Shown piece after piece: positions 10,098 through 44,173 of a stretch of DNA of 64,000 nt. Under the pieces are notes generated by a model. It was not told the origin of the DNA. It did not search any database and saw only the letters and a list, made by a program, of their open reading frames with translations. The stretch's first letter is position 1. Every line of letters begins with the position of its first letter. The stretch covers positions 124,001 to 188,000 of the forward strand of contig JALIHJ010000014.1 in the NCBI GenBank assembly GCA_022984795.1. Reading direction: 5' to 3'. Both the position numbers and the translations under genes were made by a program. Source of the stretch: Fabrea salina (lineage: Eukaryota; Ciliophora; Heterotrichea; Heterotrichida; Fabreidae).

Positions 10098-11792
10098 ATG
10101 TACTTAAGGCTGCACTCATCCCCAGCATGGAGTATCAAAGGCAAAGCCAGTCAAAGCAAACTGGAAGACACTCCTGGAGCTGGAACTTACTCGCCAAATG
10201 AAGTTTACCGAGATTCTTCACCAAACTGGAAAATAGGAAAGGCACCACGCTTCAAGTACTCTGTGAATGATTCTCCAGGCCCTTGTGCATATTCATATAC
10301 CTCAAGGCCAGCCTCAGCAGGACCTAAGTTTTCCAAAGCTAAGAGCTCAACTGCACTTCGATCAGAAACTCCTGGCCCTGGAGCTTACTCTTCTCCTTCA
10401 AAGTTAAGGGAAGGTCCAAGTTACTCCATTTTAGGCAGGAAGTTCTACAGTCCAGAAAACACAACTCCAGTAATATTTACTTAGGGTCCAAACCACTATG
10501 AAACTACAATAAACCTAGACCACTCTCCTAGCTACTCTATTGGCAAAAGAAGAACTTACCCCAAAAACCCTGAAGTTACTCCAGGTCCAGGAAACTACAA
10601 TAGTAGAACACCTAGCAGTTCGCCCAACTGCAGATTTGGAAAAGAGTCTAGATTAAAGGACTTAGCTGAAAACTCAGTAGGACCTGGACAGTACGAACTC
10701 AAAAGCACTTTCAGCACTAGAGGCTGGACAATGACTGAAAAACGCCCGCTTAAGGAACTTTCGCACTCTCCTGGCCCTGCTGCCTACAATTCACGGTTTG
10801 AAAAAGCAGCACCTAGTTTCACCATGGCAAAGTCCGCGCGTCCTGATATGGTGAAGTCCCACAAAGAACTTCCTGGACCAGGGCAATACAACTACGAAAA
10901 AAGCTATAAACCCCAAGGCGGAACAATTTCAAAACAAAAAAGACTTTTAGAGTACTCGTTGTCCCCAAGTCCGGGCCCTGGAGCTTACAATTACTCAGCG
11001 AAAAAAGAAGCTCCTTCTTTCTCGATTGGAGGGAAGTTTAAACCACACGGAAAGTCAGACACTCCGGGTCCAGGAACTTACACTCCCAACAAACTTGAAA
11101 ACTCTCCTTCTTACTCCATTGGAGTAAACCGCTATAGACCTGAAAGCTCTTTAAACTGCAGTCCTTCTACAAAGCCCAGTCCTGCAAAGAGACCTAAGAC
11201 TAGTGTTAGATCTATGAAGCTGAGCGACTACACTCCTGGGTCAGTGCTTAAAACTTCCCCAAGTACTTTTCTGAGAACCAAGAATGACACCCCTGGACCT
11301 GGCTCATACAATGCCCAAGTTTACACCAAAGTGCCAATTTACAGAATAGGCAAGGCAAAAAGAAACTTGTACCCTAAGGTTGAGGACACGCCTGGACCAG
11401 GAGCATACACTACTAATTCTTACCTAAACAAGTCTGCTTCTTCATTTGGAAAAGCCACCAGAACTCAAAAACCAAAAGAAAATGGAAGCGTAGGTCCAGG
11501 CTCTTACTTTTACACTGAAAAAAGCAGGGGACCTTCTTACTCAATTTATAAGAGGTACAGGAACCAGCAAAGATCAGATACTCCAGGCCCAGGAGCTTAC
11601 TATTCTAAGTCTTGGGGAGGAGAACTAAAGTCCACTAGCATGATAAAACTCAGCCAAAAGATTTCGCCTCAGTGGAGCTTTGCAAAGGGAGGCAGAATCC
11701 AGCCAAAAGATGACCCTACACCTGGCCCTGGAAGTTATAACATTCCTAGCAGCATAGCCGACGTTCCAAGTTATGCCATTAAAACTACTTAA
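10098..11792 (+). CDS. Sperm-tail PG-rich (STPGR) repeat protein, two exons
   Basis: A 559-residue axonemal or microtubule-associated protein built of about 15 repeats with core (T/S)PGPGxY spaced roughly 35 residues apart, separated by basic linkers with SYSIG-type motifs. Family members such as STPG1 and ODF3 line ciliary microtubules. The frame is broken at 10482-10484 by TAG, but removing a 15-base intron at 10470-10484 joins ...NTTP to GPNHYE and restores a repeat exactly across the junction. I chose M at 10098 (MYLRLHSS) because sequence upstream of it in frame has no repeats and is AT-rich leader. Its stop is followed after 3 bases by the next gene's ATG. Confidence 0.92.
10470..10484 (+). 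other. 15-base intron in the STPGR gene
   Basis: Reads gtaatatttacttag and lies in phase 0. It carries an in-frame TAG if retained, and its removal rebuilds a TPGPNHY repeat core. It has T9 and A10 (the likely branch-point adenine) like the other introns in this window. Confidence 0.93.
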
Positions 11793-11795
11793 TAA

Positions 11796-14711
11796 ATGGA
11801 AAATCAAAATTTATATTGGGAGTGCTTCAAAAACGTTGAAAAAGGTGAAGCATTGCAAAAAGTTTATGACTCGGTTCCTAAACCCGTTACAGACGAAAAT
11901 GTGGCTGAATTTCTCACTAAAGCTTCGAGTAGTTTAGGCTATGATATTTCTGGTGCTAAAGAGTCCTTTTCGAAGTGGACGAACCTCAACGACCCACTTG
12001 ACGTTGTTTGTATCAAAGACATAAGTTTTGACGAATTGAAGAGGAGACTTGGCAACTGGGTGCTTGAAAGAGTCCACTCTGAGTCCAAAGAAAAGTTGCC
12101 GTTATCTAAGTTCATCAGTCAAGCTAGGGACGTTTACCAAAAGAATCCAGAAAGCACCTCAATTACTTCTGTTTTAAAACAAGAAGTTGAAAAACTTTCA
12201 AAAGCCAATAAGGAACCAGTTAAGCAGATTCCCAAAGAGCCAATTAAGCAGGCTTCCAAAAAGCCAGAAGAACAAAAGCCCAAGCCCAAACCCAAACAGA
12301 GAACTAAAGAGACTTTGGACTCCAATGTTGAAGTGACTATGGAAGAAGCAAAAGAAACTGCCTGTAGCTACAGCACCAACCCTGAACTTTCCTACAAGTT
12401 CTGGAATGCTTTTTTAAACATAAACACTGGAAACGTTGTAGAAGAACCTTTTATGATGAAAAAAAAGCCTATTGACGAGTCAAAGGCTGGCGAAGTAGTT
12501 AAAGAAATTGAAAAAGTCTTAGAGTTGGAGTTTGACTTCAAAGAAAACATCTTTTTAAAGTGGGTGAACCCCAACGACCCCAACGATGTTGTAAACGGAA
12601 GAGACATTAGCTTGCTTGAATTCAAAAAAAGACTTGGGAACTCCATTTTGAAAACCCTGTTTGACTTAAAGACTGTTTACTACGGAAGCACTTTCCAGTT
12701 CATCCAAGAAATCAGAGGAAAGGTAGGACAACCTGTAGTGGACAAAAAACTAGTGAAGTCCCTGATGAAAGAACTTCAGGAAAAAGAAATCAAGGACCTC
12801 ATGAAAAAAAAGCAAGCTAAAGGACTTGAGTACAAGGCCAAAGAAGTAAAAGACCTTGAGTACCAAGTAGAGTCTACTCCTGACCCCAAAGAAAAGTTAA
12901 AAGCTGTTAAAAACCTCAATGAAAAAAAGAAAGACTTTGAGGTCGACAAAAGAAAGATTTACTACGTAAGGAAATTCCGCAAGTCAAGTTCCCAAAGCGT
13001 TGAAGAGTCCTATGAAAAGTCACTTAAACAGATTTTAAACAACAACTTTGAAAAACCCCGCAGGTCAGTTGAAAAAAAACACCAAGAAGAACCCATCACT
13101 ATCAAAGCCTTTGAAAAAAGTCCTAGAAAAGAAAGATCGAAAGAAAAAATCACACCACCTAGAGCGCAGTCCAAAACTAAAATCCAACCCCAGGCAGAAA
13201 ACGTTCTTAGTAAGTTAAAACCCACTAAAACCAACCTTAAGACTCCAAAGGAAGGAGTTAGCTACTTATCTAAAAGTGAGCCAGTTAAAAATAGCAGCTG
13301 GATCAAGCCTTTGTTCAAGCACTATGAGTCTTATTTAGCTGAAGCTTTTTACGCCTTCGACTCAAACAAAAACAACAAAATTCAGGCTGAGAACTTACCA
13401 AGTGTTTTGCGGGATTTGTTTAAAAAAGCCCAGTTGCTAATAGACGAAAGGTCCTTGTCTAAATTTGACAGTTTAGTTAGTTCTATGTTCAGTCCAAGTG
13501 AAGAAGTTACTTTTGAACAATTTTGTCAAACGGCTGAAGACTGGGCTAAGAGTTACAACAAAGTTAAAAACAGAATCATCAACATCATTGAGAAAAGCAT
13601 CGAGGAGTTCAAAAGCATCCTGAGCTCCTACAACTACCACGACCAAAGCATCCAAGACACTGTTGACCAAATGCAGAACTACTTAGATGTAATAGCTGAG
13701 AAAAAAGCTAAGGAAATTGAAAAGAACATAGACATAGAAACTTTAAAAGCCATAAACGAGATCTTTATGTTCTACGCTAAGTCCAGCACTATGGTGGGCA
13801 AAAAGCCTACTTTCGAGGCTTTGAAAGACAACAACGAAACTTGGGGCATCAGCAAGTTTATGAAGTTTTGTTCAGATTTCAGCATTACTCGGAAAAACTG
13901 GGCCAAAGAGAGACTGCTTTCTAGCGAAGAACTTTCAGAAATATTCAAAAGAACTGCTACTTACTCCCGCTACATGAGCAAAAACGAGTTCATCAGTGCG
14001 CTAGACAAAATAGCTGACAACTTTTTTAATGAAACTTACGACCAACTCTACCAAACCAAGTACTCTTGTTTGCCTGTTGTTCACAAAAGAAGTTTGTTTT
14101 ACGCTTTTTTAGAAATAAACAGTAAAGAAGGCTACAAGAAGAAAATGAAAGGCTTCGGGATTCCTTTTGGGAACTTCAAAGACGATGAAAGGATTCCTAA
14201 AGACGAAAGCAGCCACAAGTACAGCTTCAGACTGTCTCCTCAAAAAAAGCGCCAACTAAATGAGTGGAGGGAAAAAAACTACTCAAACTCGCCTGTGAGA
14301 CCAAACCAAAAAGAACTCAACGAAGCCAATAGTTTCAAAAGAATCAGAACTCCTTCAGTTCCTAAGTCAGGCTACGCACGGAGACTCTTGGCTAAAAAAA
14401 CCGCTCAAAGTAACCACAATAACTCAGCAGCAGAGTCTTCTGTAAAAGAAACAGACTCCCACGAAGGAGGAACACCTTTATACTTCAAGAACCTTTCAGA
14501 ACTCCAAGTGAACAAAGAAGAAATGGATGACTTTCTGCACCAAGAAGAAGACGAACAAGTTCAAAAGTTCTACGGGTCACTTAGCACTCAACGTTATTCC
14601 CAAAACTCCAACACGAGACTAAAGGCTGTAATGCAAATGCACGATGAAAAGTACAACAAAGGACTCAAAGTCATCCAAAAAGCCAAAAACGGGTTTAACA
14701 AGTATCTATGA
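11796..14711 (+). CDS. Orphan 971-aa protein with duplicated N-terminal domain
   Basis: No known family is recognised. Two related domains occupy about residues 25-125 and 200-320; both contain an F.KW.N.NDP.DVV..(R/K)DIS..E.K(R/K)RLGN block. A Pro/Lys linker separates them and a long Lys/Glu-rich disordered region follows. An EF-hand-like segment near 511-540 (AFDSNKNNKIQAENL) and a helical region (about 550-800) come next, then a basic tail. The Ca2+-type loop and location beside the STPGR gene make a cytoskeletal role conceivable, but this is inference. The ATG comes only 3 bases after the preceding stop. The stop is TGA. Confidence 0.85.
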   Translation: MENQNLYWECFKNVEKGEALQKVYDSVPKPVTDENVAEFLTKASSSLGYDISGAKESFSKWTNLNDPLDVVCIKDISFDELKRRLGNWVLERVHSESKEKLPLSKFISQARDVYQKNPESTSITSVLKQEVEKLSKANKEPVKQIPKEPIKQASKKPEEQKPKPKPKQRTKETLDSNVEVTMEEAKETACSYSTNPELSYKFWNAFLNINTGNVVEEPFMMKKKPIDESKAGEVVKEIEKVLELEFDFKENIFLKWVNPNDPNDVVNGRDISLLEFKKRLGNSILKTLFDLKTVYYGSTFQFIQEIRGKVGQPVVDKKLVKSLMKELQEKEIKDLMKKKQAKGLEYKAKEVKDLEYQVESTPDPKEKLKAVKNLNEKKKDFEVDKRKIYYVRKFRKSSSQSVEESYEKSLKQILNNNFEKPRRSVEKKHQEEPITIKAFEKSPRKERSKEKITPPRAQSKTKIQPQAENVLSKLKPTKTNLKTPKEGVSYLSKSEPVKNSSWIKPLFKHYESYLAEAFYAFDSNKNNKIQAENLPSVLRDLFKKAQLLIDERSLSKFDSLVSSMFSPSEEVTFEQFCQTAEDWAKSYNKVKNRIINIIEKSIEEFKSILSSYNYHDQSIQDTVDQMQNYLDVIAEKKAKEIEKNIDIETLKAINEIFMFYAKSSTMVGKKPTFEALKDNNETWGISKFMKFCSDFSITRKNWAKERLLSSEELSEIFKRTATYSRYMSKNEFISALDKIADNFFNETYDQLYQTKYSCLPVVHKRSLFYAFLEINSKEGYKKKMKGFGIPFGNFKDDERIPKDESSHKYSFRLSPQKKRQLNEWREKNYSNSPVRPNQKELNEANSFKRIRTPSVPKSGYARRLLAKKTAQSNHNNSAAESSVKETDSHEGGTPLYFKNLSELQVNKEEMDDFLHQEEDEQVQKFYGSLSTQRYSQNSNTRLKAVMQMHDEKYNKGLKVIQKAKNGFNKYL

Positions 14712-14733
14712 GGAATTTTCCAGTAATTAAATA

Positions 14734-15138
14734 ATGATTTTTAGGTACTTAGACAAAGCAGTGGACAAAGGGGTAGCCAAAATGTTTTCAAAAGGCAGAA
14801 AAGTAGGAAGGAGACTTGAAAGAGCTTACTACTCCAGTTACAAGCACTGGCTAGTTTACATTTCAAGAAGGAGCAAAGACAAGTCTGTGAAAATGACTAT
14901 GTTTATTTTAGCTTACTGCACCTTTGCTGTTTTCAGAGCTGTAATTGACTTGATGCACATGTCACCCACTATGCAAAGGGATGCTCCTTACTCTGCCCAC
15001 TTAGAAATGCTGGACAACTTCAACGAAGGAAAACCCATAGAAGAAGACCACGAACAACAAAAGATCGGTAAGGTGGTTAAAATGGACCGTTCCCAACAAA
15101 GAACCATCACGGACTTTTTGAACCAAAGAGGAAAATAA
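14734..15138 (+). CDS. Orphan small membrane protein, 134 aa
   Basis: No family is recognised. The first 50 residues are strongly basic with amphipathic character (KAVDKGVAKMFSKGRKVGRRLERAYY). One likely membrane span follows (about 52-70, MTMFILAYCTFAVFRAVI), then a hydrophilic tail. A basic start and a single span would suit a mitochondrial inner-membrane component, but there is no direct evidence. The start is preceded by CAGTAATTAAATAATG, the usual AT-rich leader, and the stop lies 17 bases before the next gene. Confidence 0.72.
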   Translation: MIFRYLDKAVDKGVAKMFSKGRKVGRRLERAYYSSYKHWLVYISRRSKDKSVKMTMFILAYCTFAVFRAVIDLMHMSPTMQRDAPYSAHLEMLDNFNEGKPIEEDHEQQKIGKVVKMDRSQQRTITDFLNQRGK

Positions 15139-15155
15139 GTATTTATAAACTTAAT

Positions 15156-15437
15156 ATGGAACAAGAAGGCGACCAGGAAGACATAAGTTTAGTTATTTTG
15201 AAAACACTTTCTAAAAACTTTGCTAAGTACATTGAGGAACATACTCTTGACCCAGGAACAACTCAACACTTACAAACCCAACTAGACTTAATCAACCAAC
15301 AACTTCAACTAATGCAAGAAGGCAAGTATGAAGAAGCTGCGGAAGTAGAGCAAAGAGTTGATAAAGATTCTATTCCTGATGAAGTCAAGGAGTCACTTCA
15401 GTCAGAACTCGACTTTAACATGTGCTCAGTCTTTTAA
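15156..15437 (+). CDS. Orphan small acidic helical protein, 93 aa
   Basis: No family is recognised. It is acidic, without membrane spans, and probably two or three helices (LQTQLDLINQQLQLMQEGKYEEAAEV resembles a coiled coil). It ends in NMCSVF, loosely like a CaaX-type tail but with Cys at the fourth position from the end, so the prenylation motif would read CSVF; this is speculative. It is flanked by 17- and 14-base gaps in a run of same-strand genes. Confidence 0.68.
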   Translation: MEQEGDQEDISLVILKTLSKNFAKYIEEHTLDPGTTQHLQTQLDLINQQLQLMQEGKYEEAAEVEQRVDKDSIPDEVKESLQSELDFNMCSVF

Positions 15438-15451
15438 TTTATAAGTCATAA

Positions 15452-16156
15452 ATGCTAAGGAAGGGCATCAAAAGATTCACCTGCCAAGACATAAAAGCTA
15501 ACTATCATCCAATAAAATCTGAGTCTGAAAGGCTAAGTAAAGTTTTGGAGTCCTCAGTCAAAGCTCTTCTGTACCCAAAAGAAGCACAGCATCTTTCAAC
15601 TTTCGGGGAGCTTTCTTCTTACTACGTACTTAAAGCAATACGTCAGAAAATGACCCAAGACTCCGTTGGGCTGCAAATCTTAAAAGAAAAACCTAGAATC
15701 AGACCTCCTTACGTGGACATTGAAGAACTCAGAGCTTTGCCCGTAAACACTCTAGGCAGAAAGTACGCTTACTACATGGACAACAACGCTTTTGAAATCC
15801 AAGAAAGACCCCTTGTAAAGCATATAGGAGATATTGAACTTGCTTACATCTACCAAAGGTACAAAGAAATCCATGACCTGCTACACGTAACTTTTGAAAA
15901 AGATGTTTCTGTTTACGAAGAACTAGAAGTTAAATGGTTTGAGTTCCAGCAGTTAGAGTTAGCCTCTGCTGGAATGTCTGCTTTGGTAGGTTCTGCTTTG
16001 CTTCCTCCACAAGAAGCCTGGCAACTATTCACTCAGGATGGACCTAACATGATCAAAGAAGCCAAAAAAGCCAAGTTCTGCATGAACGTTTACTTCGAAA
16101 AGCACTTTGAACAAGACTTCCAAGAATTTAAGAATTACTTTCTAAATAACTATTAA
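15452..16156 (+). CDS. COQ4: Ubiquinone biosynthesis protein COQ4
   Basis: A 234-residue homologue of COQ4, the mitochondrial matrix protein needed for coenzyme Q synthesis. The family's HDxxH metal-binding signature appears as HDLLHVTFEKDVSVYEE near residue 140. The surrounding blocks (LPVNTLGRKYAYYMD, DIELAYIYQRYKEIHD and the ELASAGMSALVG helix) also fit. The N-terminus MLRKGIKRFTCQDIKANYH is basic and low in acidic residues, consistent with a mitochondrial presequence. Length is normal for the family. The stop lies one base from the end of the convergent RING gene. Confidence 0.93.
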   Translation: MLRKGIKRFTCQDIKANYHPIKSESERLSKVLESSVKALLYPKEAQHLSTFGELSSYYVLKAIRQKMTQDSVGLQILKEKPRIRPPYVDIEELRALPVNTLGRKYAYYMDNNAFEIQERPLVKHIGDIELAYIYQRYKEIHDLLHVTFEKDVSVYEELEVKWFEFQQLELASAGMSALVGSALLPPQEAWQLFTQDGPNMIKEAKKAKFCMNVYFEKHFEQDFQEFKNYFLNNY

Positions 16157-16157
16157 G

Positions 16158-16622: not shown

Positions 16623-16633
16623 GATATTATTAA
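16623..16633. promoter_or_regulatory. 11-base divergent spacer between RING gene and FAM221A
   Basis: The whole sequence between the two opposite ATG codons is gatattattaa. Both flanking genes are well supported by homology from near their first residues, so any promoter must fit in 11 bases or extend into coding DNA. The sequence is purely AT-rich apart from one G and contains ATTATTAA, like the leaders of other genes here. Promoter function is inferred from position. Confidence 0.55.
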
Positions 16634-17362: not shown

Positions 17363-17404
17363 CTAATAACTATTCTGGATCACATACCCACAATTACGAA
17401 AAAT

Positions 17405-18535
17405 ATGTCTTTGGTCTCAGAGTCAATATTAGTATCAATAGACGCAGTTTTGGTCGTACTGATAGTTGCTTCAAGTGCTTTGATGCTAGTAAAACTAGGG
17501 GTATGCTTTACGTAGGTTGTTGAAAAAAAAGCTGGAACTCCCCTTTCAAAGATGACCATAAATCTTTTTCTGCCATGCCTGATGCTAACTGAGCTTATAC
17601 AGAACCTTGATCCTAGTGATCTGATAGCTTTTTTAGTGATCACTCTGTTTACTATCGGTACTTTATAGGCAGCGCATATTCTTCTAGGAAGTTTTTTGGG
17701 ATGGGTCTCCTCAAAACTTCTAACAAGCAACTCAGGCATAGCTAAACTGATGATGACTTGTCCTTCCTTCCACAACTTGTCAATAGCTTTGATCTTTGCT
17801 CAAGTTCTGGGTTCCAGTAATATAATCCAGGAGCCTGATTTCGGAGAGAAGTCAGTCCAGTATGTTTTATCCTGCTTTGCAATAAACGGGTTTGCAATGT
17901 GGTCAGGGGCTTTTTCTGTGATGGAAAAAGACTCCAAAAAGTGCGATTCTGACCTTAGTTTATGCATGCTTCCAACTAAAGATCGCGACATAAAAGATAA
18001 CTACCAGAAAAGTAGTTTGATTTTAGGGATAAAGAAATCACTTAACCCACCTGTAGTGGCGACTTTAATTGGAATTCCTTTAGCACTTATTCCTTACTCA
18101 CGCGAATACGTTTTTGCAGGGGAAAATGCTTATTTGCGTGATAATTTGTTTGCCAGTTTGTCGATGATGGGCAAAGCAGCTCCTATGCTGATTACTTTCT
18201 TGATAGGGCTTAAACTCAGTGACGGGTACTCGCCCCTTGCAGACGTATCGTGGAAGTCGATAGGGGCTATTGTGTTTCTGAAGATGTTCATACTGCCCTG
18301 GATTGGAATAGGGCTGGTGTACCTTTTGTACACTGCTGAAGTAATCGGAAGGGTCTTGGCCATAACTATAGTTTTGCTGTGGAGTTCGCCAACTTCTTTA
18401 CAGCTGTTTATGGTGTGTTCAGCTCAAGAAAACCAGGAGGACAACATTGCAAAGGTGTTTACAATCATGTACCTGACTTGTCCTATTCCTTTGGCCATCA
18501 ACACCCTCATATCAATTTATCTATTATACATTTAA
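17405..18535 (+). CDS. PIN-like / auxin-efflux-carrier-family transporter, three exons
   Basis: A 366-residue multi-pass membrane protein of the auxin efflux carrier (AEC) superfamily, with five hydrophobic segments before and five after a short cytosolic loop. Two frame breaks are removed by 15-base introns at 17501-17515 and 17658-17672. The spliced protein then aligns from end to end with the next gene (TINLFLPCLMLTELIQNLDPSDL; AHILLGSFLGW; SPTSLQLFMVCSAQENQEDNIAKVF). The substrate is unknown; in non-plant eukaryotes these are generic permeases. The start at 17405 follows ACGAAAAATATG and corresponds to the paralogue's start region. Confidence 0.92.
17501..17515 (+). other. 15-base intron 1 of the first PIN-like gene
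   Basis: Reads gtatgctttacgtag, phase 0, with an in-frame TAG if retained. Removal joins LVKLG to VVEKKAG, matching the paralogue's LVQLGVIHKSAE. T9-A10 is present. Confidence 0.92.
17658..17672 (+). other. 15-base intron 2 of the first PIN-like gene
   Basis: Reads gtactttataggcag, phase 1, ending in CAG rather than TAG. Removal creates an Ala codon and the segment TIAHILLGSFLGW, matching IIHILLGTALGW in the paralogue. T9-A10 is present. Confidence 0.9.
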
Positions 18536-18547
18536 CTCAGTAATAAA

Positions 18548-19618
18548 ATGTCGCTCTTACTAAATTCAATTCTCACTTCCCTAAATGCAGTTTTTGCCAT
18601 TCTCATAGTTGGACTGAGTGCACTTGCACTAGTTCAACTAGGAGTAATTCACAAATCTGCAGAGCGTCCCATTTCGAGAATCACCATCAACCTCTTACTG
18701 CCGAGCCTTATTTTTTCAGAACTACTGGCAAACTTAGAGCCGACAGACCTCCTTATGTTTCTCTGCATAACTTTGATAAGCATCATACACATTCTTTTAG
18801 GCACAGCACTGGGTTGGGCAGTTGCGTCTTTGTTGAAAGAAGAAAACGGAGTGAAACGACTCATGAGTATTTGCTGTGGTTTTTTCAACCTTACAATTGC
18901 TCTTATGTTCACTGAGATGCTTGGCAAGAGCGAAGTCACTCTGAGTGACGGGCAGTTCCACCACAAAGTACTTCAGAACGTGCTTTCTTGTTATGCCATT
19001 AATGGTTTTTCTATATGGTTTGGTGCTTTTTCAGTTATGAAAAAAAAAACCAACAAAGGGTACTTTTTGGAAGAACCAAAAAGGTCACTTTTGGAAACTT
19101 TTCTGAAGAAGCTGCGGAGTGGAATAAACCCCCCAGTAATTGCCATTCTGTTAGCTTTGCCTGTAGTTTTCATTCCAAAAATACGAGACACTTTGTTTAT
19201 AGGCAAAACAGCTCTGTTCCACAACAACTTGTATGCAGCTCTTGACATGATGGGGAGTTCTGCTCCTATGCTGATTATATTTTTGATTGGCATTAAGTTG
19301 TCTGGAGGGTACTCCTCGTCTGCTACAATTAGTTGGTGGTCAATAGTGTTTGTGATTTCAATCAAGTTAGTGTTGATTCCCTGGGTAGGAATCACTGCTA
19401 TGTATTTACTTTACAAAGCCCAGGTAGTTTCTAGGATTTTAGCTATGAGTTTAGTTATTCTTTGGAGTTCTCCTTCAGCTTTGCAGCTGTTCATGGTTTG
19501 TTCAGCTCAAAAAAACCAAGAAGAAAACATTGCAAAGATTTACACAGTTATGTACATGGTTAGCCCGATTACTCTAGTAATCAATAACTTCATATCTTTA
19601 AATCTGTTTTACGAGTAA
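18548..19618 (+). CDS. PIN-like / auxin-efflux-carrier-family transporter, intronless paralogue
   Basis: A 356-residue paralogue of the preceding gene, starting 13 bases after its stop. It has about ten hydrophobic segments in two groups of five. Shared blocks include ISRITINLLLPSLIFSELLANLEPTDLL, the unwound-helix region NVLSCYAINGF.IWFGAFSVM, MMGSSAPMLIIFLIGIKLSGGYS and SPSALQLFMVCSAQKNQEENIAKI. Neither intron of its neighbour is present, so introns were gained or lost after duplication. The loop between the two bundles is short (about residues 165-185), unlike long-loop plant PINs. Confidence 0.92.
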   Translation: MSLLLNSILTSLNAVFAILIVGLSALALVQLGVIHKSAERPISRITINLLLPSLIFSELLANLEPTDLLMFLCITLISIIHILLGTALGWAVASLLKEENGVKRLMSICCGFFNLTIALMFTEMLGKSEVTLSDGQFHHKVLQNVLSCYAINGFSIWFGAFSVMKKKTNKGYFLEEPKRSLLETFLKKLRSGINPPVIAILLALPVVFIPKIRDTLFIGKTALFHNNLYAALDMMGSSAPMLIIFLIGIKLSGGYSSSATISWWSIVFVISIKLVLIPWVGITAMYLLYKAQVVSRILAMSLVILWSSPSALQLFMVCSAQKNQEENIAKIYTVMYMVSPITLVINNFISLNLFYE

Positions 19619-19624
19619 GCTTAG

Positions 19625-31032: not shown

Positions 31033-31527
31033 TTAATTAGGCTTTAAGACTTGGTTTTTAATGCTGTTTTGGATGCGTTTTTGACTCAACTCGTAAAAAT
31101 TCTGAGTGGAACTAAGGTCTGAACTAAGCTTTCTTTTCATTCCAAGTGAAAACTGACATGGAATGAGACGAATCTCGAAAGAATTAGATCTTCTTTTTCC
31201 AGAAGAACTAATAGGATGGGTACTATAAAACTTTCCAGAGTCCAGAAATTCATTTTCTGAGATCTGGTTCCATTCTGCTGCTTGGTTCCAGGAACTAATG
31301 CCTTCTTCAGTTGAAAGATGGGTTTCGGTTTCTTGGCTGTGCTTTAAAGCAGCGTTCTCCTTAGAGAGTTTTCTGTTTTTCTCAGTAAGTCTATTTAAAT
31401 CTTACTTTTGAATGACTTTCAGGTACTTACTACACTTGCGTTTGCTCACTGCAAGCTCCTGAGTTAAATTAACTACTGTCTTTCTTAATTCGAGAAATTC
31501 ATTCGAAAAGTCTGTTTCGGGTTTCAT
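31033..31527 (-). CDS. Orphan coiled-coil protein, 159 aa, two exons
   Basis: No family is recognised. A frame starts at 31527 (MKPETDFSNEFLELRKTVV) and meets TAA, but removing a 15-base intron at 31391-31405 lets it run to TAA at 31033-31035. The first 65 residues form a leucine-rich coiled coil (FLELRKTVVNLTQELA...YLKVIQK | LTEKNRKLSKENAALK), and its heptads continue across the splice junction. The remainder is Ser/Lys/Asn-rich and basic. Each exon alone looks too short to be noticed. The start is 161 bases from the divergent beta-tubulin gene. Confidence 0.8.
31391..31405 (-). other. 15-base intron in the coiled-coil orphan gene
   Basis: On the minus strand it reads gtaagatttaaatag, phase 2, with an in-frame TAA if retained. 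Removal rebuilds a Lys codon and continues the coiled-coil heptads. T9-A10 is present. Confidence 0.85.
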
Positions 31528-33023
<1,496 letters not shown>

Positions 33024-34249: not shown

Positions 34250-34301
34250 TTTATATCCTTAATGGTCATTTTCCAATTTGGCGCCAAAACGTATTAGGTT
34301 A

Positions 34302-36290: not shown

Positions 36291-36294
36291 TTAA

Positions 36295-37182: not shown

Positions 37183-37192
37183 TTTAATTAAC

Positions 37193-38383
37193 TTATAGTT
37201 TTTTTAAACCTTCTTCAATTAAGAGTTGGTTGAGTTCTGCGTCTTCAAGTTTTTTAAGTATAGTTTTGTAAACCTTACAGTTGTTTTTAAGTTGTTCCAT
37301 TCCAACTGATACCTTTTCGTTTAACTTAGCCAGAATGTATTCAACAGGGGCATCCTGCTCCCCTGCAATGAGTTTTCTTTTGTGGTTTCTGTAGTCAATT
37401 AAGTAGTTTTTGAACTTTTTCACGTCTTTGGCTTTTTGAGAGTTCTTTTTCAAAAGCACTCTAAGTTTAACAGCCCACTTAATAGTATTTGCAGCTTTGG
37501 TTCTTAACTGAGCGTGGTCATGGTCTTTTTTGACCTTATCGTAAGCATTTCTTTCTTTTGAAGTGAATTCAGAACTTATAGTAAGTGACAAAACCATTAA
37601 AGAAACTAAAAAAGTTCCCCAAAAAGAAGCTAAAACTCCGATGAACCTTCCTAAGTGCGTGGAGGGATAAAAATCTCCAAAGCCCACTGTAGTCATCGTA
37701 ATCAAAATGCACCACACTCCGTTCCACAAGTAGTCCCATTGCATTCCTGAAGTTTCCATGTAGGGTCTTTCAGAGACCCTTAAAGCCACTCCCAGTATCA
37801 AAGTAGACACAACCAAAGCAACCCCAACCACAAAGTAAGGCCTTTCTTTAAGTTCAGCTTTTAAAGCAAAGTTGTCACCTCCTCTGCACAAGTAGTTGTT
37901 GCAGAAACGCTCTGAGTCAAGGTCTTTCCAAGAGCTAAAGTTAAGCAAGACTCTCCAGATCCAGTAGACTTTTCCCAGCATCGCCAAAAAGACCAGTGCA
38001 TCCAAAGAGTACTCTACCTTTTCTGAGTGCTGAGGAAACTCAAAAACCCAGTTGCACCCTGGAGCTGTGTGTATTGAACAATAAATTAATTCCAGTGCCC
38101 AACCACTCTTTGGACTCTGGATTCCTTGATTGGCCCACTGTAGTCTGGAGTTTAGTTTATGTCTGTAAAGTACTATAATGCACAACCCCACTGAAATAGT
38201 TCCTATAAATACTCTCAGAAAAGTGTTAACAGGTTTTTCTTGGTGTTTCTCATCTCCATAAAAAAGTTCATTTTCCCAGTAAGCTAAAATCAGACTTAGA
38301 ACAGCCAGAACCATTCCGAAAAAGTCAACTCTTTTTACAGACTGCAGAGTGTTGCAGAGTTCAGAGTAGCTATTCAGTTCCAT
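37193..38383 (-). CDS. SK-type (small-conductance Ca2+-activated) K+ channel
   Basis: A 396-residue six-span K+ channel. Membrane segments lie in about residues 15-290, with the selectivity filter TTVGFGDFYP near 231. A weakly charged S4 region separates it from voltage-gated channels. After S6 (VSLMVLSLTISSEF) a basic helix AANTIKWAVKLRVLLKKN sits where SK channels bind calmodulin, followed by a predicted coiled coil at the C-terminus (MEQLKNNCKVYKTILKKLEDAELNQLLIEEGL). It probably couples Ca2+ entry to membrane hyperpolarisation and so to ciliary beat. The ATG is 30 bases from the divergent orphan. Confidence 0.9.
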   Translation of the reverse strand: MELNSYSELCNTLQSVKRVDFFGMVLAVLSLILAYWENELFYGDEKHQEKPVNTFLRVFIGTISVGLCIIVLYRHKLNSRLQWANQGIQSPKSGWALELIYCSIHTAPGCNWVFEFPQHSEKVEYSLDALVFLAMLGKVYWIWRVLLNFSSWKDLDSERFCNNYLCRGGDNFALKAELKERPYFVVGVALVVSTLILGVALRVSERPYMETSGMQWDYLWNGVWCILITMTTVGFGDFYPSTHLGRFIGVLASFWGTFLVSLMVLSLTISSEFTSKERNAYDKVKKDHDHAQLRTKAANTIKWAVKLRVLLKKNSQKAKDVKKFKNYLIDYRNHKRKLIAGEQDAPVEYILAKLNEKVSVGMEQLKNNCKVYKTILKKLEDAELNQLLIEEGLKKL

Positions 38384-38413
38384 AAGATATATGATACAAG
38401 TTGTTAAAATTAA

Positions 38414-38809
38414 ATGGAAAGAATTAAAAAGGCACTAGAAAAGAAAACCAGCTCAGTAGTTACACTCACTAACAAACAAAGGTCCTTTTCGAACCTTCAA
38501 AAGTTAAAAAGCCCCTTCAGAGAAAGCTCTGTTCTTAACTTATTCCCTGAAATAACATCTGAAAAAATCAGAGCAGCTGCAGTCTCTATAGGAAGCTCTA
38601 TTTATAGGCAACCAAGCAAAAAAACCCTGCAAATAGAAACCAACAACTTAGGCAGTAAAGAACCTTCTTTAGTGGCTCCTTCCAAAAAAATCAACCTGCT
38701 CAAGATGGATTCAAACTTTCCAAACAGTTTACTTCCTGAAATTTATAGTAGAGCTAGTAAACCTACTTTAAGAAAAAACCTAAGAAAAGAACCAAACCTA
38801 ACTATTTAA
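38414..38809 (+). CDS. Orphan basic protein, 131 aa, possibly with a displaced C-terminus
   Basis: No family is recognised. It is Lys/Ser/Asn-rich and probably disordered, resembling other small basic orphans here. The start follows TTGTTAAAATTAAATG. It ends ...LRKNLRKEPNLTI at TAA 38807-38809. A different frame stays open through 38928 with codons like those of real genes; a single extra base in the AAAAAA run at 38773-38778 would connect the two. Either the C-terminus is truncated by an error or mutation, or the short form is right. Confidence 0.62.
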   Translation: MERIKKALEKKTSSVVTLTNKQRSFSNLQKLKSPFRESSVLNLFPEITSEKIRAAAVSIGSSIYRQPSKKTLQIETNNLGSKEPSLVAPSKKINLLKMDSNFPNSLLPEIYSRASKPTLRKNLRKEPNLTI

Positions 38810-38928
38810 TAGAAGGACAGAAAAAAAGCATTAACAGCCGACTTGACAAATACGCAAGATTCAGCAAAAGGAAGAAGCAAACTAAGTTTGAAATTGCACT
38901 TGGCACTTCTTACTGCTCAGAAGACTAA
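38759..38928 (+). other. Open segment in shifted frame after the basic orphan
   Basis: Frame 1 from 38761 reads TYFKKKPKKRTKPNYLIEG, then continues with KKSINSRLDKYARFSKRK and on to TAA at 38926-38928. Codon choice (AAC, GAC, TAC, TTC, AGC) matches true genes and the composition suits a basic C-terminus. No ATG opens this frame and no 15-base intron joins it to the upstream frame. The following 76 bases to the GrpE start are AT-rich with nothing else visible. Confidence 0.35.
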
Positions 38929-39004
38929 ACCAATAAGTCTAAGTTTGCTACAAAGACTTTGACTATAAGTCAGTTTTAAAGGTTCGACATTTAATAAATC
39001 ATAT

Positions 39005-39679
39005 ATGGCACAAACTTCACTGGCAAACTTCTTCATAAGGAACTTCAGCACACTTAGGAGAGCTTCAGGACTGAGGAACTCCCTTAGAAGGTCCTTTAGT
39101 GAGTCAGAAAAAAAACCTCAAGAAGAAGAAAAGGAACCTCAAGAAAAACCTCAAGAGTCTTCCTCTGATTCTGAAGACGAAGCCAAACTCAAAGAACTCC
39201 AAGACAAACTTAAAGCTACCGAAGAAGAAGCCCTTAAGTACAAAGACCACTACTTAAGGGCCCTTGCAGAGCAAGAAAACACAAGAAGACGCCTGAACAA
39301 AGAAATCGAAAACGAAAAAACCTATGCCATCACTCGCTTTGCCAAAGAAATCATAGAAGTCTCAGATAACCTCCAAAGAGCCCTAGATAACATTCCTTCT
39401 GAAGAAAAAATCCAAGAAGAGCCACTTAAAGTCCTGGAGGATATGAAAGAAGGCGTGAAAATGACTCGCGAAGTTCTCATGGGCACCTTGATGAAGTTCG
39501 AAATAACTGAGTACAACCCTGTTAACGAGAAGTTTGACCCCAACCTGCATGAAGCACTTTTCACATACCAAGATGAGTCCAAAGAACCCGGGACTGTAGG
39601 GCAAGTAATTTCCACAGGCTACAACATCAAGGACAGAATTCTCAGGTCTGCTAAGGTAGGCGTTATTAAAAAGGCTTAA
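39005..39679 (+). CDS. GRPEL1: Mitochondrial GrpE nucleotide-exchange factor
   Basis: A 224-residue GrpE/Mge1 protein that releases ADP from mitochondrial Hsp70. The start is a typical presequence (MAQTSLANFFIRNFSTLRRASGLRNSLRRSF). A Glu/Gln/Lys-rich stretch, the long GrpE coiled coil (about 75-130, KLKATEEEALKYKDHYLRALAEQENTRRR) and the beta-wing domain with PVNEKFDPNLHEALF and TGYNIKDRILRSAKVGVIK follow. It pairs functionally with the DnaJ gene at 44.2 kb. Its stop overlaps that of the convergent asparaginyl-tRNA synthetase through a shared TTAA. Confidence 0.96.
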   Translation: MAQTSLANFFIRNFSTLRRASGLRNSLRRSFSESEKKPQEEEKEPQEKPQESSSDSEDEAKLKELQDKLKATEEEALKYKDHYLRALAEQENTRRRLNKEIENEKTYAITRFAKEIIEVSDNLQRALDNIPSEEKIQEEPLKVLEDMKEGVKMTREVLMGTLMKFEITEYNPVNEKFDPNLHEALFTYQDESKEPGTVGQVISTGYNIKDRILRSAKVGVIKKA

Positions 39680-41535
39680 AATTCAGCGTGTCCCGGCCAC
39701 CTTGGGTAAGGAATCACATCTCTGATGTTTTCTACTCCAGTCACCATCATGATGAGTCTTTCAAAGCCTAGTCCAAAACCAGCGTGGGGTACTGACCCGT
39801 ACTTCCTGAGGTCCCTGTACCACCAGTAAGACTCTTTTTCGAGTTCTTTAGTTTCAATCATCTCGTCAAGTTTCTCTAACCTGTCTTCTCTCACACTGCC
39901 TCCAATTACTTCGCCTATTTTCGGAACCAAAATGTCCATGGCTTGCACTGTTTCTTCAGTGTCGTTTTGCTTCATGTAAAAGGCTTTAAGAACCTTAGGG
40001 TAATTATATACAATTACAGGTCCTTTAATTACCTCTTCACAAATGTACCTCTCGTGCTCAGATTGCAAGTCACTTCCCCAAGTAACCTTGCTTTCAAACT
40101 TCTTTTTTGCTTTAGTAACTATTTCAACGGCTTCGGTGTAAGTGATGCGTTTGAAAGGGCTTTCCAAAACATTCCTTAGTCTAGAAACGAGTCCTTTTTC
40201 CACAAACTTTTCTAGGAACTCTAAGTCGTCGTAGCAGTTGTCCAAAGCGTACTTAATGCAGTACTTAAGGTAACTTTCAGCACACTCCATGTTTTCTTCA
40301 AGACCAGCCCAGGCCATTTCAGGCTCTATCATCCAAAACTCTGCCAAGTGCCTTGATGTGTGGGAGTTCTCTGCCCTAAAAGTAGGTCCAAAGGTATAAA
40401 CGTCTGACAGAGCACAGCAGTAGTTCTCTACTGCCAACTGTCCTGAAACAGTCAGAAAAGCTGGCTTGTTGAAAAAGTCTTTGGGAGGACCTTCTTTTTG
40501 GGGAATTTTGCTCGTAACTGTAAACATCTCTCCTGCTCCTTCACAGTCAGACGCTGTCAAAATAGGAGTATGCACATACAAGAAACCGCGTGAGTTAAAG
40601 AAGTTGTGTGTGGCAAAACTCATAGCATTTCTAACCCTGGAAACACACCCTATTATGTTAGTCCTAGGTCTAAGGTGTGCAATGGACCTTAAGAACTCCA
40701 AACTCAAACCCTTTTTTTGAATGGGAAAAGAAGCCTGGTCGCACAGCCCTGCTACCACTAGCTCGTGCTCACTCGGGTCTTTTACCTGCATTTCTACAGA
40801 CTGAGATCCTGGACTGTCAACTAGCTTTCCTTTGCACGACAAACTTATGCCTGTACCTTGAAGTAACTCGAAGTTAGGCATTTTCCCGTCAATCACTATC
40901 TGTAAGTTCTTTATGTTGGATCCGTCGTTGAGTTCGACAAAGGCAAAAGCACCTCCTCCTTGCTTCCTGACAGTTTTGGCCCAACCCTTAACAGTGATCA
41001 CTTGTCCAATAAGTTCAGGACTAGACAAAACATAGTCTACTCTGTATCTGGCTCCTGTTCCAAAGGGAATAGTGAAGTGTTTGTTGTCTGAAGATTCTTC
41101 TTCCTGGTGCTCGAGTTCGTCGCTCAGGAACTGGGCTTGCTTCATCCCTCTTAAGTACTTTGCAAGTTTCTTGTGTGAAGCAGGAAGCTTCTTGAAAAGC
41201 CCTCCAAGCAAAGCCACAGCCACTATAAGCAAGTCTAGGATGGTAAGTCTTTCTTCAAAGGCCCAAGAACCTTGAGACAAAAGTTTGTCACAGGTACTGC
41301 AGAAGTGCTCTAGGCCCTCTGGAGAGGATATGAAGGGCATGCACCCACATAAACTGTGTAGGAACTGAATTACTTGGGCTTGTTGTAAAGAAGAGTCTGG
41401 CATTAATGAAGCCTCCCGAGCCATGTACTTAGCGTTTGCAGCTACTAACTGTGAGTTGCTCAAAGAAGAACACTCTACTCCTGTAGCCTTTTGCACAAGA
41501 TTCCTGAGTTTTTGGGTCACCTTAGCAGCGTCCAT
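39676..41535 (-). CDS. NARS1: Asparaginyl-tRNA synthetase, cytosolic type
   Basis: A 619-residue class IIb synthetase charging tRNA-Asn. An N-terminal appended helical region (about 1-145) precedes the OB-fold anticodon-binding domain (about 165-270, VITVKGWAKTVRKQGGGAFAFVELNDGS). The catalytic core has a motif 2 of FRAENSHTSRHLAEFWMIEPE type and a motif 3 of GFGLGFERLIM near 590-600. GEVIGGSVRE and the C-terminal NIRDVIPYPRWPGHAEF separate AsnRS from AspRS. The ATG at 41535 directly abuts the stop codon of the upstream gene, with no spacer. Confidence 0.97.
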   Translation of the reverse strand: MDAAKVTQKLRNLVQKATGVECSSLSNSQLVAANAKYMAREASLMPDSSLQQAQVIQFLHSLCGCMPFISSPEGLEHFCSTCDKLLSQGSWAFEERLTILDLLIVAVALLGGLFKKLPASHKKLAKYLRGMKQAQFLSDELEHQEEESSDNKHFTIPFGTGARYRVDYVLSSPELIGQVITVKGWAKTVRKQGGGAFAFVELNDGSNIKNLQIVIDGKMPNFELLQGTGISLSCKGKLVDSPGSQSVEMQVKDPSEHELVVAGLCDQASFPIQKKGLSLEFLRSIAHLRPRTNIIGCVSRVRNAMSFATHNFFNSRGFLYVHTPILTASDCEGAGEMFTVTSKIPQKEGPPKDFFNKPAFLTVSGQLAVENYCCALSDVYTFGPTFRAENSHTSRHLAEFWMIEPEMAWAGLEENMECAESYLKYCIKYALDNCYDDLEFLEKFVEKGLVSRLRNVLESPFKRITYTEAVEIVTKAKKKFESKVTWGSDLQSEHERYICEEVIKGPVIVYNYPKVLKAFYMKQNDTEETVQAMDILVPKIGEVIGGSVREDRLEKLDEMIETKELEKESYWWYRDLRKYGSVPHAGFGLGFERLIMMVTGVENIRDVIPYPRWPGHAEF

Positions 41536-42205
41536 TTATAAATTATTGATTAAATCAGCTACTTGGGAAGTGAGGTGTGACTCAGAAACAGAGTGACCTC
41601 TTCTGAGTTCGTTGAGTTGGTTGACTACTAGTATGTATTTTCTATGCAGGTTGTCAAAAAGTTCTTCTTTGCTGGTAGCAACTAAAGGCTTTCTTTCAAA
41701 AACCTCTAAAGGAAACCAGTCTATCATATTGTTGGACTTTTTCGTGCTTTGTTTCTATGTAGTCTGTGATCGAATTGGCTTTTTCGTTGGCTAAACTAAT
41801 CAAAAACTTAAACTGTGGGTCTTCTTCTAGTTGGGGTTCTCTGGTTTGTTGCAACTCAAATATTTCTTGGGCAGAAAAGTTTTGGATCTTCAACAGGCAC
41901 TTTTTAATCGCTTTAGCTAGTTGATGCTCAACTAGTTTGACTTGCAAAAGGTTGCATACAGCTTGGGCGTCTAATTCGTTGACTTGAGAAGCCAATAAGT
42001 CCCTTTTAAGGTTTTCAGGAGTGCTGGCATTTAGTTCTAGCTCAACAAACTTAGACCCCCCCGAAGGCAGTTCATAGGTTATTTTAACGTGTTTGCTTCT
42101 TGAAAAGTCTAACTTAGCATCTGAAATTGATACACTGTTTGACTTAGTTCCTGTTATCAAGTTCCTTAAATTCAGTCCACCTGCGCTTTCCTCGATTCCT
42201 TCCAT
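41536..42205 (-). CDS. Orphan protein gene with a probable frame break
   Basis: Two overlapping minus-strand frames: 42205 to 41696 (169 residues, MEGIEESAGGLNLRNLITGTK..., ending DYIETKHEKVQQYDRLVSFRGF, TGA) and 41727 to 41536 (63 residues, from MIDWFPLEVFERKP to TAA). Both have local codon style and helical character. Skipping one base in the AAAAA run just before GTCCAACAA would fuse them into about 220 residues; no GT-AG piece of 15 or 16 bases does so. One gene with an assembly error or a recent mutation is likelier than two genes overlapping by 32 bases. No family is recognised. Confidence 0.6.
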
Positions 42206-42240
42206 AATTTACAGACTATTGCGTTCAAATAAGAATTTAA

Positions 42241-43538
42241 ATGGAACTTACTCCCCAAATCGTACAAGAAGCCTCCCAAGAAAAAACACCTAACAAAGTG
42301 TTTGTTGTTGATTTCAGTAAACAAGAAATCTCCAAAGTGTGTTTGCTCAATTCTTTTCCTAAACTCAAAACTATAAACTTGAGTTTCAACATCATCCAGC
42401 AAGTTCCAGAGGGTGCCTTTGACAACCTTAAAGAGCTCAAAGAACTCAACCTTTCGTGCAACTATCTTTCGAAGTTCAAGTGCAGGTCTACTTCTTTGAA
42501 AGTGCTAGAACTAAGTTTTAACAGAATTAGTTCCTTAGAAGGAATTCACAGTATGATTGTAAAGCCTAATTAGAACCTTGAAGTGCTAAAAGCAGATAAC
42601 AACGCCCTGGAGTCTATGGCAGGCTTGAAGAAACTAAGGAAGCTAAAGTCTTTGGACCTGTCCATTAACTCTATTGAAACTGTCCAAGAAGTAGACAAGC
42701 TACAAGTAACTTTTACTTAGTTAGAAACTTTCAGAGTGAACTACAACAGAATCCAAAACATAGTCCCTGGACAGTTGCCAAGTTCCTTAACTACTCTAAA
42801 TGCATGGGGAAACCAACTGGCAAACGCTTCGTTTTTAAAAACTCTGCTTAACTTGGAGTCCTTGTACTTAGACCAAAACAAACTTTATTCTCTAGAAGAC
42901 TTTCCTGTTTTGCCTAGACTGACTGACCTTTCTTTGTCTGAAAACCAGATTTTTATGATTGGCAACTCCTTGTTGGTTCACGAGTTGTTTCCTAAACTTG
43001 TGTTTTTGAACTTAAGCAAAAACTCCCTTTATGACCGAGTAGAGTTACTAACGCTATCCGAAGTGCCTAGTCTTTTGGAGCTTGACTTGTCTGGAAACCC
43101 CTGTGCTGAGTCTCCTGAGTTCGAAGCTAGAGTTTTAGAAGACTACCCCCAAGTAATTGCAATTAACCAAAAGTACGTTGAAAAAGACGCTCAGTAAGTT
43201 TTATATAGAGAACTACTAAAAATTCGCTGAACTTAAGTGAAAACTCAAGTTTCATCCAAGACTTAGAAAAAACTCAAAGAGAAATAACTCAAAGACGGTC
43301 ACAGGCCTTACTTATTCTCAAAAACATAGAAGTGTCTATGGAAAGGACGTTCTACGACGAATTTGACAGAGTGAAAGAAACTCCGGAAGAGTTCAAGCCT
43401 TTGCAACAAGAAAAGTTAGACACTACCTTAAGAGCTGCCTTTCATGAAACTCAAACTCCTAAGACTTCACGACCTGTGAGCAAGAAAAGACAAAGACTCC
43501 AAGAAGCTTTAGACTTTAAACAAATCTTTGACAGTTAA
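42241..43538 (+). CDS. Leucine-rich-repeat protein, three to four exons
   Basis: An SDS22-like leucine-rich-repeat protein of about 416 residues. About ten LxxLxLSxNxI repeats run from residue 35 to 290 (for example LKVLELSFNRISSLEGI, LKSLDLSINSIETVQEV, LELDLSGNPCAESPEF), followed by a helical tail. Fifteen-base introns at 42559-42573 and 42706-42720 restore whole repeats. A third junction at 43194 is less clear: the canonical 15-base intron leaves the frame closed after seven codons, while a 17-base intron (43194-43210) or one missing A in the AAAAA run near 43220 opens the tail to TAA 43536-43538. Such proteins often act in cilia (LRRC/DNAAF types). Confidence 0.85.
42559..42573 (+). other. 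15-base intron 1 of the LRR gene
   Basis: Reads gtaaagcctaattag, phase 0, with an in-frame TAG if retained. Removal joins HSMI to NLEVLKADNNAL, completing a leucine-rich repeat. T9-A10 is present. Confidence 0.92.
42706..42720 (+). other. 15-base intron 2 of the LRR gene
   Basis: Reads gtaacttttacttag, phase 0, with an in-frame TAG if retained. Removal joins EVDKLQ to LETFRVNYNRIQ, completing a repeat. T9-A10 is present. Confidence 0.92.
43194..43208 (+). other. Probable third LRR-gene intron (15 bases, or 17 to 43210)
   Basis: Reads gtaagttttatatag with T9-A10, like the other introns. If 15 bases are removed, the frame ends at TGA seven codons on (QELLKIR). If 17 bases are removed (ending gag), the frame continues 109 codons to 43538. 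The downstream segment has clear coding character, so something joins it. Confidence 0.6.
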
Positions 43539-44173
43539 TACTCAAGATCATCTAGGTTTTCTGGGATTCCAAAGTGCTTGTTGATGTCTGACTCCTTTAA
43601 ACTTGGGTTTCTTTTAATCATCCAGTCCTTGATGTTCCAAATGTTTTCAGTCCAAACGTTGGCGTTACTCACACTAGTTTTGGCTTTTTGGGTTATTTCG
43701 TCAAAAAAGTCTTTGGAGCACCCTTTTAAACTTTGTTCTTCTTGCTTTAAAACCTGGTTTTGGAGAACAAGGTCTTCAAGTTGTTGTATCAAAGCAAGCC
43801 TTGTTTCTGTTTCAGGTTTCTGGATTAGTTCTTCTTGTATTTGTTGGTTCAGCAGTTTCCGGTTGGTTTTTAATTCTTGGATTTCGTAGTCAAGTTCTTC
43901 TAACTTAACAACTCTGATGTGTCTGTTTTTAGAAGGAAGTGACCACAAAAAGTTGCCTGCACCTATTTTATCAGTTTCAACTAAAGCGTCGTCAACTAGA
44001 CTCTGGACAACTTCTTTGACAGTGTTGTGAACTACGCCTGCTTTGTTGCCTAAGTTTTCGAGTTCTTTCAAGTTAAAGACTTCTTTCTAGTTAGTTTTTA
44101 CTTTTGTTTGCAAGATACTCAGCATCTTTTGTCTTTTTTCTTCAAAGCTCAGTCCTTTCTTTTTCCCGCCCAT
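43535..44173 (-). CDS. MND1: Meiotic nuclear division protein MND1, two exons
   Basis: A 207-residue partner of HOP2 that stimulates Dmc1/Rad51 strand exchange in meiosis. With the 15-base intron at 44087-44101 removed, the protein opens MGGKKKGLSFEEKRQKMLSI, then LQTK | KEVFNLKELENL, matching the N-terminus of MND1 (xKKKGLSxEEKRxxM...VFxLKxLE) with its winged-helix region VVHNTVKEVVQSLVDDALVETDKIGAGNFLWSLPSK. A long coiled coil (about 85-150) and NVWTENIWNIKDWMIKR follow. Only the splice restores the conserved start. The coding end shares TTAA with the LRR gene. Confidence 0.95.
44087..44101 (-). other. 15-base intron in MND1
   Basis: On the minus strand it reads gtaaaaactaactag, phase 0, with an in-frame TAG if retained. 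Removal reconstructs the conserved MND1 N-terminus. T9-A10 is present. Confidence 0.94.

What the first reader, a model, noticed from the sequence alone, without database searches (positions are those of the whole stretch)
10470..44101. Eight 15-base introns with invariant T9-A10, in a standard-code compact genome
Seven GT...AG pieces of exactly 15 bases restore frames and conserved sequence in STPGR, PIN-like (two), a coiled-coil orphan, LRR (two) and MND1; an eighth is probable at 43194. All eight have T at position 9 and A at position 10, five bases before the 3' end, as expected for a branch-point adenine. Tiny introns of this size are known from heterotrich ciliates; here the spliced proteins prove them. 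Stop usage shows the standard code, which narrows the organism to Stentor/Fabrea-like lineages. Introns without in-frame stops would be hidden inside longer frames, so the true number is higher.
Basis: partly seen in the sequence, partly recalled or inferred. Interest (0 to 1): 0.8.

Follow-up and report, generated by a model that had tools for sequence, protein, structure and literature searches.

The report
Fifteen-base introns of a heterotrich ciliate
Short 15-base pieces that interrupt genes in this ciliate genome are almost certainly real introns cut out of the messenger RNA, of a kind already described in related giant ciliates.

Summary
The introns are real and the phenomenon is already known. 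Seven of the eight pieces are GT-AG 15-mers whose removal restores the frame. The eighth (43194) fails as a 15-mer: a stop follows six codons later; removing 17 bases restores the frame. Two were missed: 55283-55297 in a DHHC gene and a stopless one at 6885-6899 in a DENN gene (uDENN 41.2 to 49.4 bits on removal). In one strict sequence context across the 18.3 Mb genome A10 is fixed (116 of 117 hits) but T9 is not: 100 T, 12 C, 3 A, 1 G. Length 15 dominates (100 of 120 hits). U1, U2, U6 and UPF1 are present. Stentor has the same 15-nt, A10 architecture (PMC9505925); this genome is probably Fabrea salina (inference). Side observation: in the ten window cases the in-frame stop lies in the 3' site, branch region or 5' site according to phase (one has none), and T13 is enriched in phase-0 introns (16/18 versus 5/11, p=0.018). 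No RNA evidence was available.

The parts
10470..10484 (+). 15-nt intron, phase 0, in STPGR/SHIPPO-repeat gene; in-frame stop TAG at intron position 13
   Evidence: SHIPPO-rpt 94.7 bits with it, 99.1 without
17501..17515 (+). 15-nt intron 1, phase 0, in Mem_trans (PIN-like carrier) gene; TAG at 13
   Evidence: Mem_trans 84.7 bits with both introns, 103 without
17658..17672 (+). 15-nt intron 2, phase 1, in the same Mem_trans gene; TAG at 9, overlapping the branch region
   Evidence: lowest motif score of the 22-member training set (9.4)
31391..31405 (-). 15-nt intron, phase 2, in a coiled-coil-like orphan gene; TAA at 2
   Evidence: no Pfam family found for the protein, so support is frame and codon usage only
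42559..42573 (+). 15-nt intron 1, phase 0, in LRR gene; TAG at 13
   Evidence: repeat spacing (22 residues when spliced, read by eye); summed Pfam LRR_4 score is lower when spliced (86.7 against 93.6)
42706..42720 (+). 15-nt intron 2, phase 0, in LRR gene; TAG at 13
   Evidence: alternative is a 2-base difference in the AGAG run of the assembly
44087..44101 (-). 15-nt intron, phase 0, in MND1 gene; TAG at 13
   Evidence: Mnd1 HTH 71.9 bits with it, 79.9 without
55283..55297 (+).
   Evidence: DHHC domain found (137.4 bits) but it lies downstream, so the score does not change
6885..6899 (+). probable hidden 15-nt intron, phase 0, no in-frame stop (reads VNSTQ if kept), in DENN-domain gene
   Evidence: uDENN 41.2 bits with it, 49.4 without; motif score 15.8

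Best explanation
These are ordinary U2-type spliceosomal introns of the ultra-short heterotrich kind in a macronuclear genome, probably that of Fabrea salina. U1 would pair with GTAAG at the 5' end, U2 would select the adenosine at position 10, and the AG five bases after it is the 3' splice site, giving a lariat loop of about ten bases. Shown: position, length, ends, A10, frame restoration, better domain matches, snRNA genes. Inferred: that splicing takes place, that A10 is the branch point, and the species. Because 15 is a multiple of three, a kept intron does not shift the frame; most carry an in-frame stop, and UPF1 is present, so nonsense-mediated decay of unspliced messages is plausible but inferred.
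For: Frames restored at seven of the eight claimed sites and at 55283. Frame-only finder: 15 of 22 length-15 hits have T9A10 against 3 of 30 at lengths 14, 16, 17; 19 of 19 length-15 hits of form GTA..YAG have A10. Genome-wide 100 hits against 0 reversed; with a free gap of 0-30 bases 120 hits against 4 reversed, 100 of them 15 nt. A10 replaced: 1 hit (control 1) against 116 kept. Domain scores rise on removal: Mnd1 71.9 to 79.9, Mem_trans 84.7 to 103, uDENN 41.2 to 49.4, SHIPPO 94.7 to 99.1. U2 with GUAGUA and U6 with ACAGAGA, U1 with ACUUACCUG, each one match over its cut-off. UPF1_Zn_bind three matches over cut-off. Same architecture in Stentor, and 15/16-bp introns in Blepharisma.
Against: No RNA reads. 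The LRR gene scores lower spliced for LRR_4 (86.7 against 93.6), LRR_8 (70 against 74.1) and LRR_1 (35.9 against 42.7), about equal for LRR_9 (59.9 against 59.2); the two proteins compared also differ in length. DHHC score unchanged (137.4 both). The orphan gene has no family match. The raw count excess of GT..AG at length 15 over GA..AG and CT..AG is only about twofold. The eighth site fails at 15 nt. The 20 non-15 hits exceed the 4 of its reversed control; two listed ones are 14 nt and two 38-nt ones are identical, and I did not explain them.
Confidence: 0.95

Rival explanations
1. Unexcised internal eliminated sequences or other DNA-level inserts in a macronuclear assembly, removed from DNA in other copies.
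For: Ciliates remove short coding-interrupting inserts from DNA (passage of PMC9942806).
Against: Uniform 15-nt length, GT..AG ends and A10 on the coding strand are splicing signals; the known inserts described in that passage are bounded by TA repeats and peak at 26-28 bp or are longer.
Confidence: 0.02
2. The stops inside the pieces are read through or recoded, so the five extra residues stay in the protein.
For: 15 is a multiple of three, so reading on keeps the frame; 6885-6899 has no stop at all.
Against: TAA and TAG end 147 of 153 long coding ORFs; readthrough would not demand GT, A10 and AG; domain scores rise when the pieces are taken out.
Confidence: 0.01
3. Pseudogenes or assembly errors that happen to fit the motif.
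For: Might explain the eighth site (AGAG run).
Against: Motif peak at length 15 and 100 against 0 genome-wide.
Confidence: 0.02
4. For 43194 only: a true 15-nt intron followed by a 2-base assembly or allelic difference, rather than a 17-nt intron.
For: The 15-mer ends in TAG, the preferred YAG, while the 17-mer ends in GAG; no 17-nt hit is among the 100 listed of 120, and 2 of 15 frame-only 17-nt hits have TA seven bases before the end, none of the GTA..YAG form.
Against: The assembly as given joins frames only at 17.
Confidence: 0.4

Closest known systems
Introns of Stentor coeruleus (PMC9505925, section 2.1 read; original report Slabodnick et al. 2017, not held, seen only in reference lists)
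   Same: 15 nt, GT..AG, adenosine at position 10, standard code, U1/U2/U6 present
   Different: Stentor has 7.19% 16-nt introns; here 16-nt ones are rare (2 GTA..YAG candidates in 324 kb against 19 of 15 nt; none among the 100 listed of 120). The Stentor paper speaks of no strong branch consensus beyond the A; here T9 is 86% in one context (100 of 116).
Introns of Blepharisma stoltei (PMC9942806, passages) and the statement for heterotrichs in PMC11441545 (passages)
   Same: predominantly 15 and 16 bp; about 95% 15 bp
   Different: Blepharisma reads UGA as Trp; here TGA ends 6 of 153 ORFs
Fabrea salina macronuclear genome (Zhang et al. 2022, doi 10.1093/molbev/msac062; not held, title seen in reference lists; size 18.35 Mb and 'tiny introns' recalled)
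   Same: genome here 18,328,466 bp in 103 contigs; canonical code stated for Fabrea in a passage of PMC10553269
   Different: species not proved: two searches for the 18S gene gave no answer
3n introns of Paramecium and other ciliates (passages of PMC5014332, and PMC11334263)
   Same: in-frame stops in introns that are multiples of three, as a means for decay of unspliced RNA
   Different: there 3n lengths are avoided; here nearly all introns are 3n

Membership tests
Heterotrich ultra-short (15/16-nt) spliceosomal introns | GT..AG ends and length 15 or 16 | tested here: met
   8 window cases of 15 nt with frames or stops removed, plus 6885 by domain score; 43194 not met at 15 nt
Heterotrich ultra-short (15/16-nt) spliceosomal introns | Adenosine at position 10 of 15-nt introns | tested here: met
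   116 of 117 genome hits in one context; 19 of 19 GTA..YAG hits in 324 kb
Heterotrich ultra-short (15/16-nt) spliceosomal introns | Minor class of 16-nt introns with A at 11 | tested here: inconclusive
   two 16-nt GTA..YAG candidates, both with A at 11, one with TA there
Heterotrich ultra-short (15/16-nt) spliceosomal introns | U2-type spliceosome: U1, U2, U6 with intact recognition sequences | tested here: met
   U4, U5 not searched
Heterotrich ultra-short (15/16-nt) spliceosomal introns | Removed from mature RNA, lariat branched at A10 | not testable with these tools
   no RNA data held
Heterotrich ultra-short (15/16-nt) spliceosomal introns | Organism is a heterotrich | tested here: inconclusive
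   CCCTAACA repeats at contig starts, genome size, code; no rRNA tree (searches gave no answer)
Internal eliminated sequence | Bounded by direct or TA repeats and excised from DNA | tested here: not met
   ends are GT and AG; excision from DNA not testable here

The most novel reading that the evidence does not exclude
The 15-nt design is tuned for quality control. In a 15-nt intron with the branch A at 10, the 5' site (TAA at 2-4), the branch region (TAA/TAG at 9-11) and the 3' site (TAG at 13-15) lie in three different reading frames, so one of the splice signals can act as an in-frame stop in each phase, and intron bases are selected by phase so that a kept intron is seen by nonsense-mediated decay although all introns are multiples of three. 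This would be the reverse of the Paramecium solution, which avoids 3n lengths. Support: 9 of the 10 window cases carry a stop, placed by phase; T13 in 16 of 18 phase-0 introns against 5 of 11 others, p=0.018; 4 of 29 introns picked without using positions 11 and 13 lack a stop; UPF1 present. Against: the parallel prediction for position 11 in phase 1 is not borne out (2 of 5 purine against 7 of 24, p=0.50), the sample is small, the window cases were mostly found through their stops, and the motif weights were trained on mostly stop-bearing introns.
Probability: 0.25. Interest if true: 0.5.

Novelty: already known. Interest (0 to 1): 0.3.

Why it matters
Introns of 15 bases are near the physical limit for a spliceosome, so each lineage that has them helps to tell which parts of the signal are fixed (A10, GT, AG) and which bend (T9, position 13). 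If the phase-dependent stop rule holds, a length that is always a multiple of three would be reconciled with mRNA surveillance, which other ciliates achieve by avoiding such lengths. The finding itself confirms what is published for heterotrichs. For annotation, introns without a stop, such as 6885-6899, would be missed by any frame-based gene finder.

Tried and rejected
Rejected: 43194-43208 as a 15-nt intron. Rejected: 12-nt introns; the motif has 30 hits at length 12 in 324 kb, 26 of them inside coding ORFs, but only 1 of 8 frame-only hits at length 12 has the GTA..YAG form. Rejected as intron: the open motif hit in C2 3645-3659(-), whose kept form reads as a WD40-like stretch (by eye). Rejected: TGA as a sense codon; six coding ORFs end in TGA and the frame after it has coding scores between -3.6 and 1.3. 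Led nowhere: looking for the STPGR intron in its paralogues; none of the seven other loci L002-L008 has a motif hit of score 9 or more inside the matching gene (one at position 90 of L002, far from the match). Led nowhere: position-11 test for phase 1. Not explained: the 20 non-15-nt hits.

Not tested: U4, U5, minor spliceosome, RNA reads, other heterotrich genomes. Coverage of the local statistics: 324 kb of 18.33 Mb (C1:1-100000, C2:1-100000, C9:64001-188000); searches used the first 264 kb of that.

Literature: searches. The papers of Slabodnick 2017 and Zhang 2022 are not held, so whether they discuss in-frame stops by phase is unknown. No paper was read whole: PMC9505925 section 2.1 and passages; passages only of PMC10946202, PMC9942806, PMC10980511, PMC11308186, PMC11077807, PMC10553269, PMC5014332, PMC11334263, PMC11441545, PMC10245619.
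Full report
The window lies at C9:124001-188000 of an assembly of 18,328,466 bp in 103 contigs. Contigs C1 and C2 begin with CCCTAACA repeats, long coding ORFs end in TAA 128, TAG 19 and TGA 6 times of 153, and about nine tenths of the sample is covered by coding-like ORFs (0.905 to 0.935 per contig stretch). With the recalled size of 18.35 Mb for Fabrea salina and its canonical code (passage of PMC10553269), Fabrea is the likely source. This is an inference; two searches for the 18S gene gave no answer.

The eight sites. All eight 15-mers exist with T9 and A10. Seven join open frames on removal: STPGR 10470, a Mem_trans carrier 17501 and 17658, a coiled-coil-like orphan 31391(-), an LRR gene 42559 and 42706, MND1 44087(-). 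Domain scores rise when the pieces are taken out: Mnd1 71.9 to 79.9 bits, Mem_trans 84.7 to 103, SHIPPO 94.7 to 99.1. Against this, the LRR gene scores lower when spliced for LRR_4, LRR_8 and LRR_1 (86.7, 70, 35.9 against 93.6, 74.1, 42.7; LRR_9 59.9 against 59.2; the proteins compared differ in length as well), though by eye the spliced form gives regular 21-22 residue spacing. The orphan has no family match.

The eighth site, 43194, fails as a 15-mer: after six codons there is a stop. The downstream frame, with a coding score of 38.8 over 107 codons, is reached by removing 17 bases, GTAAGTTTTATATAGAG. Whether this is a 17-nt intron or a 15-nt intron next to a 2-base difference in an AGAG run cannot be told without reads.

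55283-55297 in a DHHC gene removes a TAA and joins the first exon to the rest; its domain score does not change because the domain is downstream. 6885-6899 in a DENN gene has no in-frame stop; removing it raises uDENN from 41.2 to 49.4 bits. Over 214 ORFs of the 324-kb sample, 7 stopless motif hits of score 14 or more were found on the sense strand, against a mean of 0.72 and a maximum of 4 in 100 codon shuffles and 3 on the antisense strand.

Chance. A frame-and-codon finder blind to the branch site gave 22 length-15 hits in 324 kb, 15 with T9A10; lengths 14, 16 and 17 gave 30 with 3. Of the 22, 19 have the form GTA..YAG and all 19 have A10. The raw excess over other end-pairs is small in this relaxed run (11 and 13 for GA..AG and CT..AG), and clear in the strict run on 264 kb (7 against 0 to 2). 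The motif GTA-N-TANNYAG peaks at length 15 (48 against a mean of 17.4).

Whole genome. GTAAGNTTTACTTAG: 100 hits, reversed 0. With 0 to 30 free bases in place of one: 120 hits, reversed 4; of the first 100 listed, 85 are 15 nt, two are 14 nt, none is 16 or 17, and 13 are 21 to 44 nt. Position 9 not T with A10 kept: 16 hits, C 12, A 3, G 1. Position 10 not A: 1 hit, reversed 1. So A10 is fixed and T9 is a strong preference of 86% in this context. C at position 13 in a related pattern: 33 hits, reversed 1.

Machinery. U2 has GUAGUA, U6 has ACAGAGA, and U1 has ACUUACCUG, all as in the Rfam consensus. UPF1_Zn_bind has three matches over cut-off.

Comparison. In Stentor, 8806 introns are annotated, 92.81% of 15 nt and 7.19% of 16 nt, with A at position 10 in 8005 (PMC9505925 section 2.1). 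Blepharisma has 15- and 16-bp introns, and heterotrichs in general are said to have about 95% of 15 bp (passage of PMC11441545). The finding is therefore a further case of a published phenomenon.

Side observation. In a 15-nt intron with A10 the 5' site (TAA at 2), the branch region (TAA/TAG at 9) and the 3' site (TAG at 13) fall in three different frames. Most of these were found through their stops, so I picked introns anew with a score that leaves out positions 11 and 13: 29 with coding support and a pyrimidine at 13 (of 51 hits), 18 in phase 0, 5 in phase 1, 6 in phase 2. T13 occurs in 16 of 18 in phase 0 and in 5 of 11 in the others (p=0.018). Purine 11 occurs in 2 of 5 in phase 1 and in 7 of 24 in the others (p=0.50). 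Four of the 29 lack an in-frame stop. The other position weights were trained on mostly stop-bearing introns. Selection for stops is thus suggested for the 3' site and not shown for the branch. In the held library the searches listed no paper on this for heterotrichs; the two genome papers most likely to discuss it are not held.

Verdict: real, correct in kind, overcounted by one at 15 nt, undercounted by two, 'invariant' true for A10 and not for T9; already known as a phenomenon.

Noticed in passing
C1:1-100000, C2:1-100000, C9:64001-188000 (L011-L036 and the window): TGA is used rarely as a stop: 6 of 153 coding ORFs of 200 codons or more (TAA 128, TAG 19).
   Followed up: partly
L011 and L021, starts of contigs C1 and C2: Contigs start with CCCTAACA telomere-like repeats.
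   Followed up: no
324-kb sample, both strands: The motif GTANNTANNYAG of total length 12 is also over-represented (30 hits, mean 17.4 at other lengths), 26 of 30 inside coding ORFs; not introns by frame, cause unknown.
   Followed up: partly
C15:5383-5420 and C38:5535-5572: The same 38-base sequence of the form GTAAG...TTTACTTAG occurs on two contigs about 5.4 kb from their starts, perhaps a shared subtelomeric repeat.
   Followed up: no
window 10095-11792; C10, C12, C13, C18, C28, C49, C56, C84: The STPGR/SHIPPO-repeat gene has relatives on eight other contigs (20 matches in all); none of the seven other loci fetched shows the intron.
   Followed up: partly
window 17384-18535 and 18536-19618: Two Mem_trans-like carrier genes of similar sequence stand in tandem; only the first needs introns to be read.
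   Followed up: no
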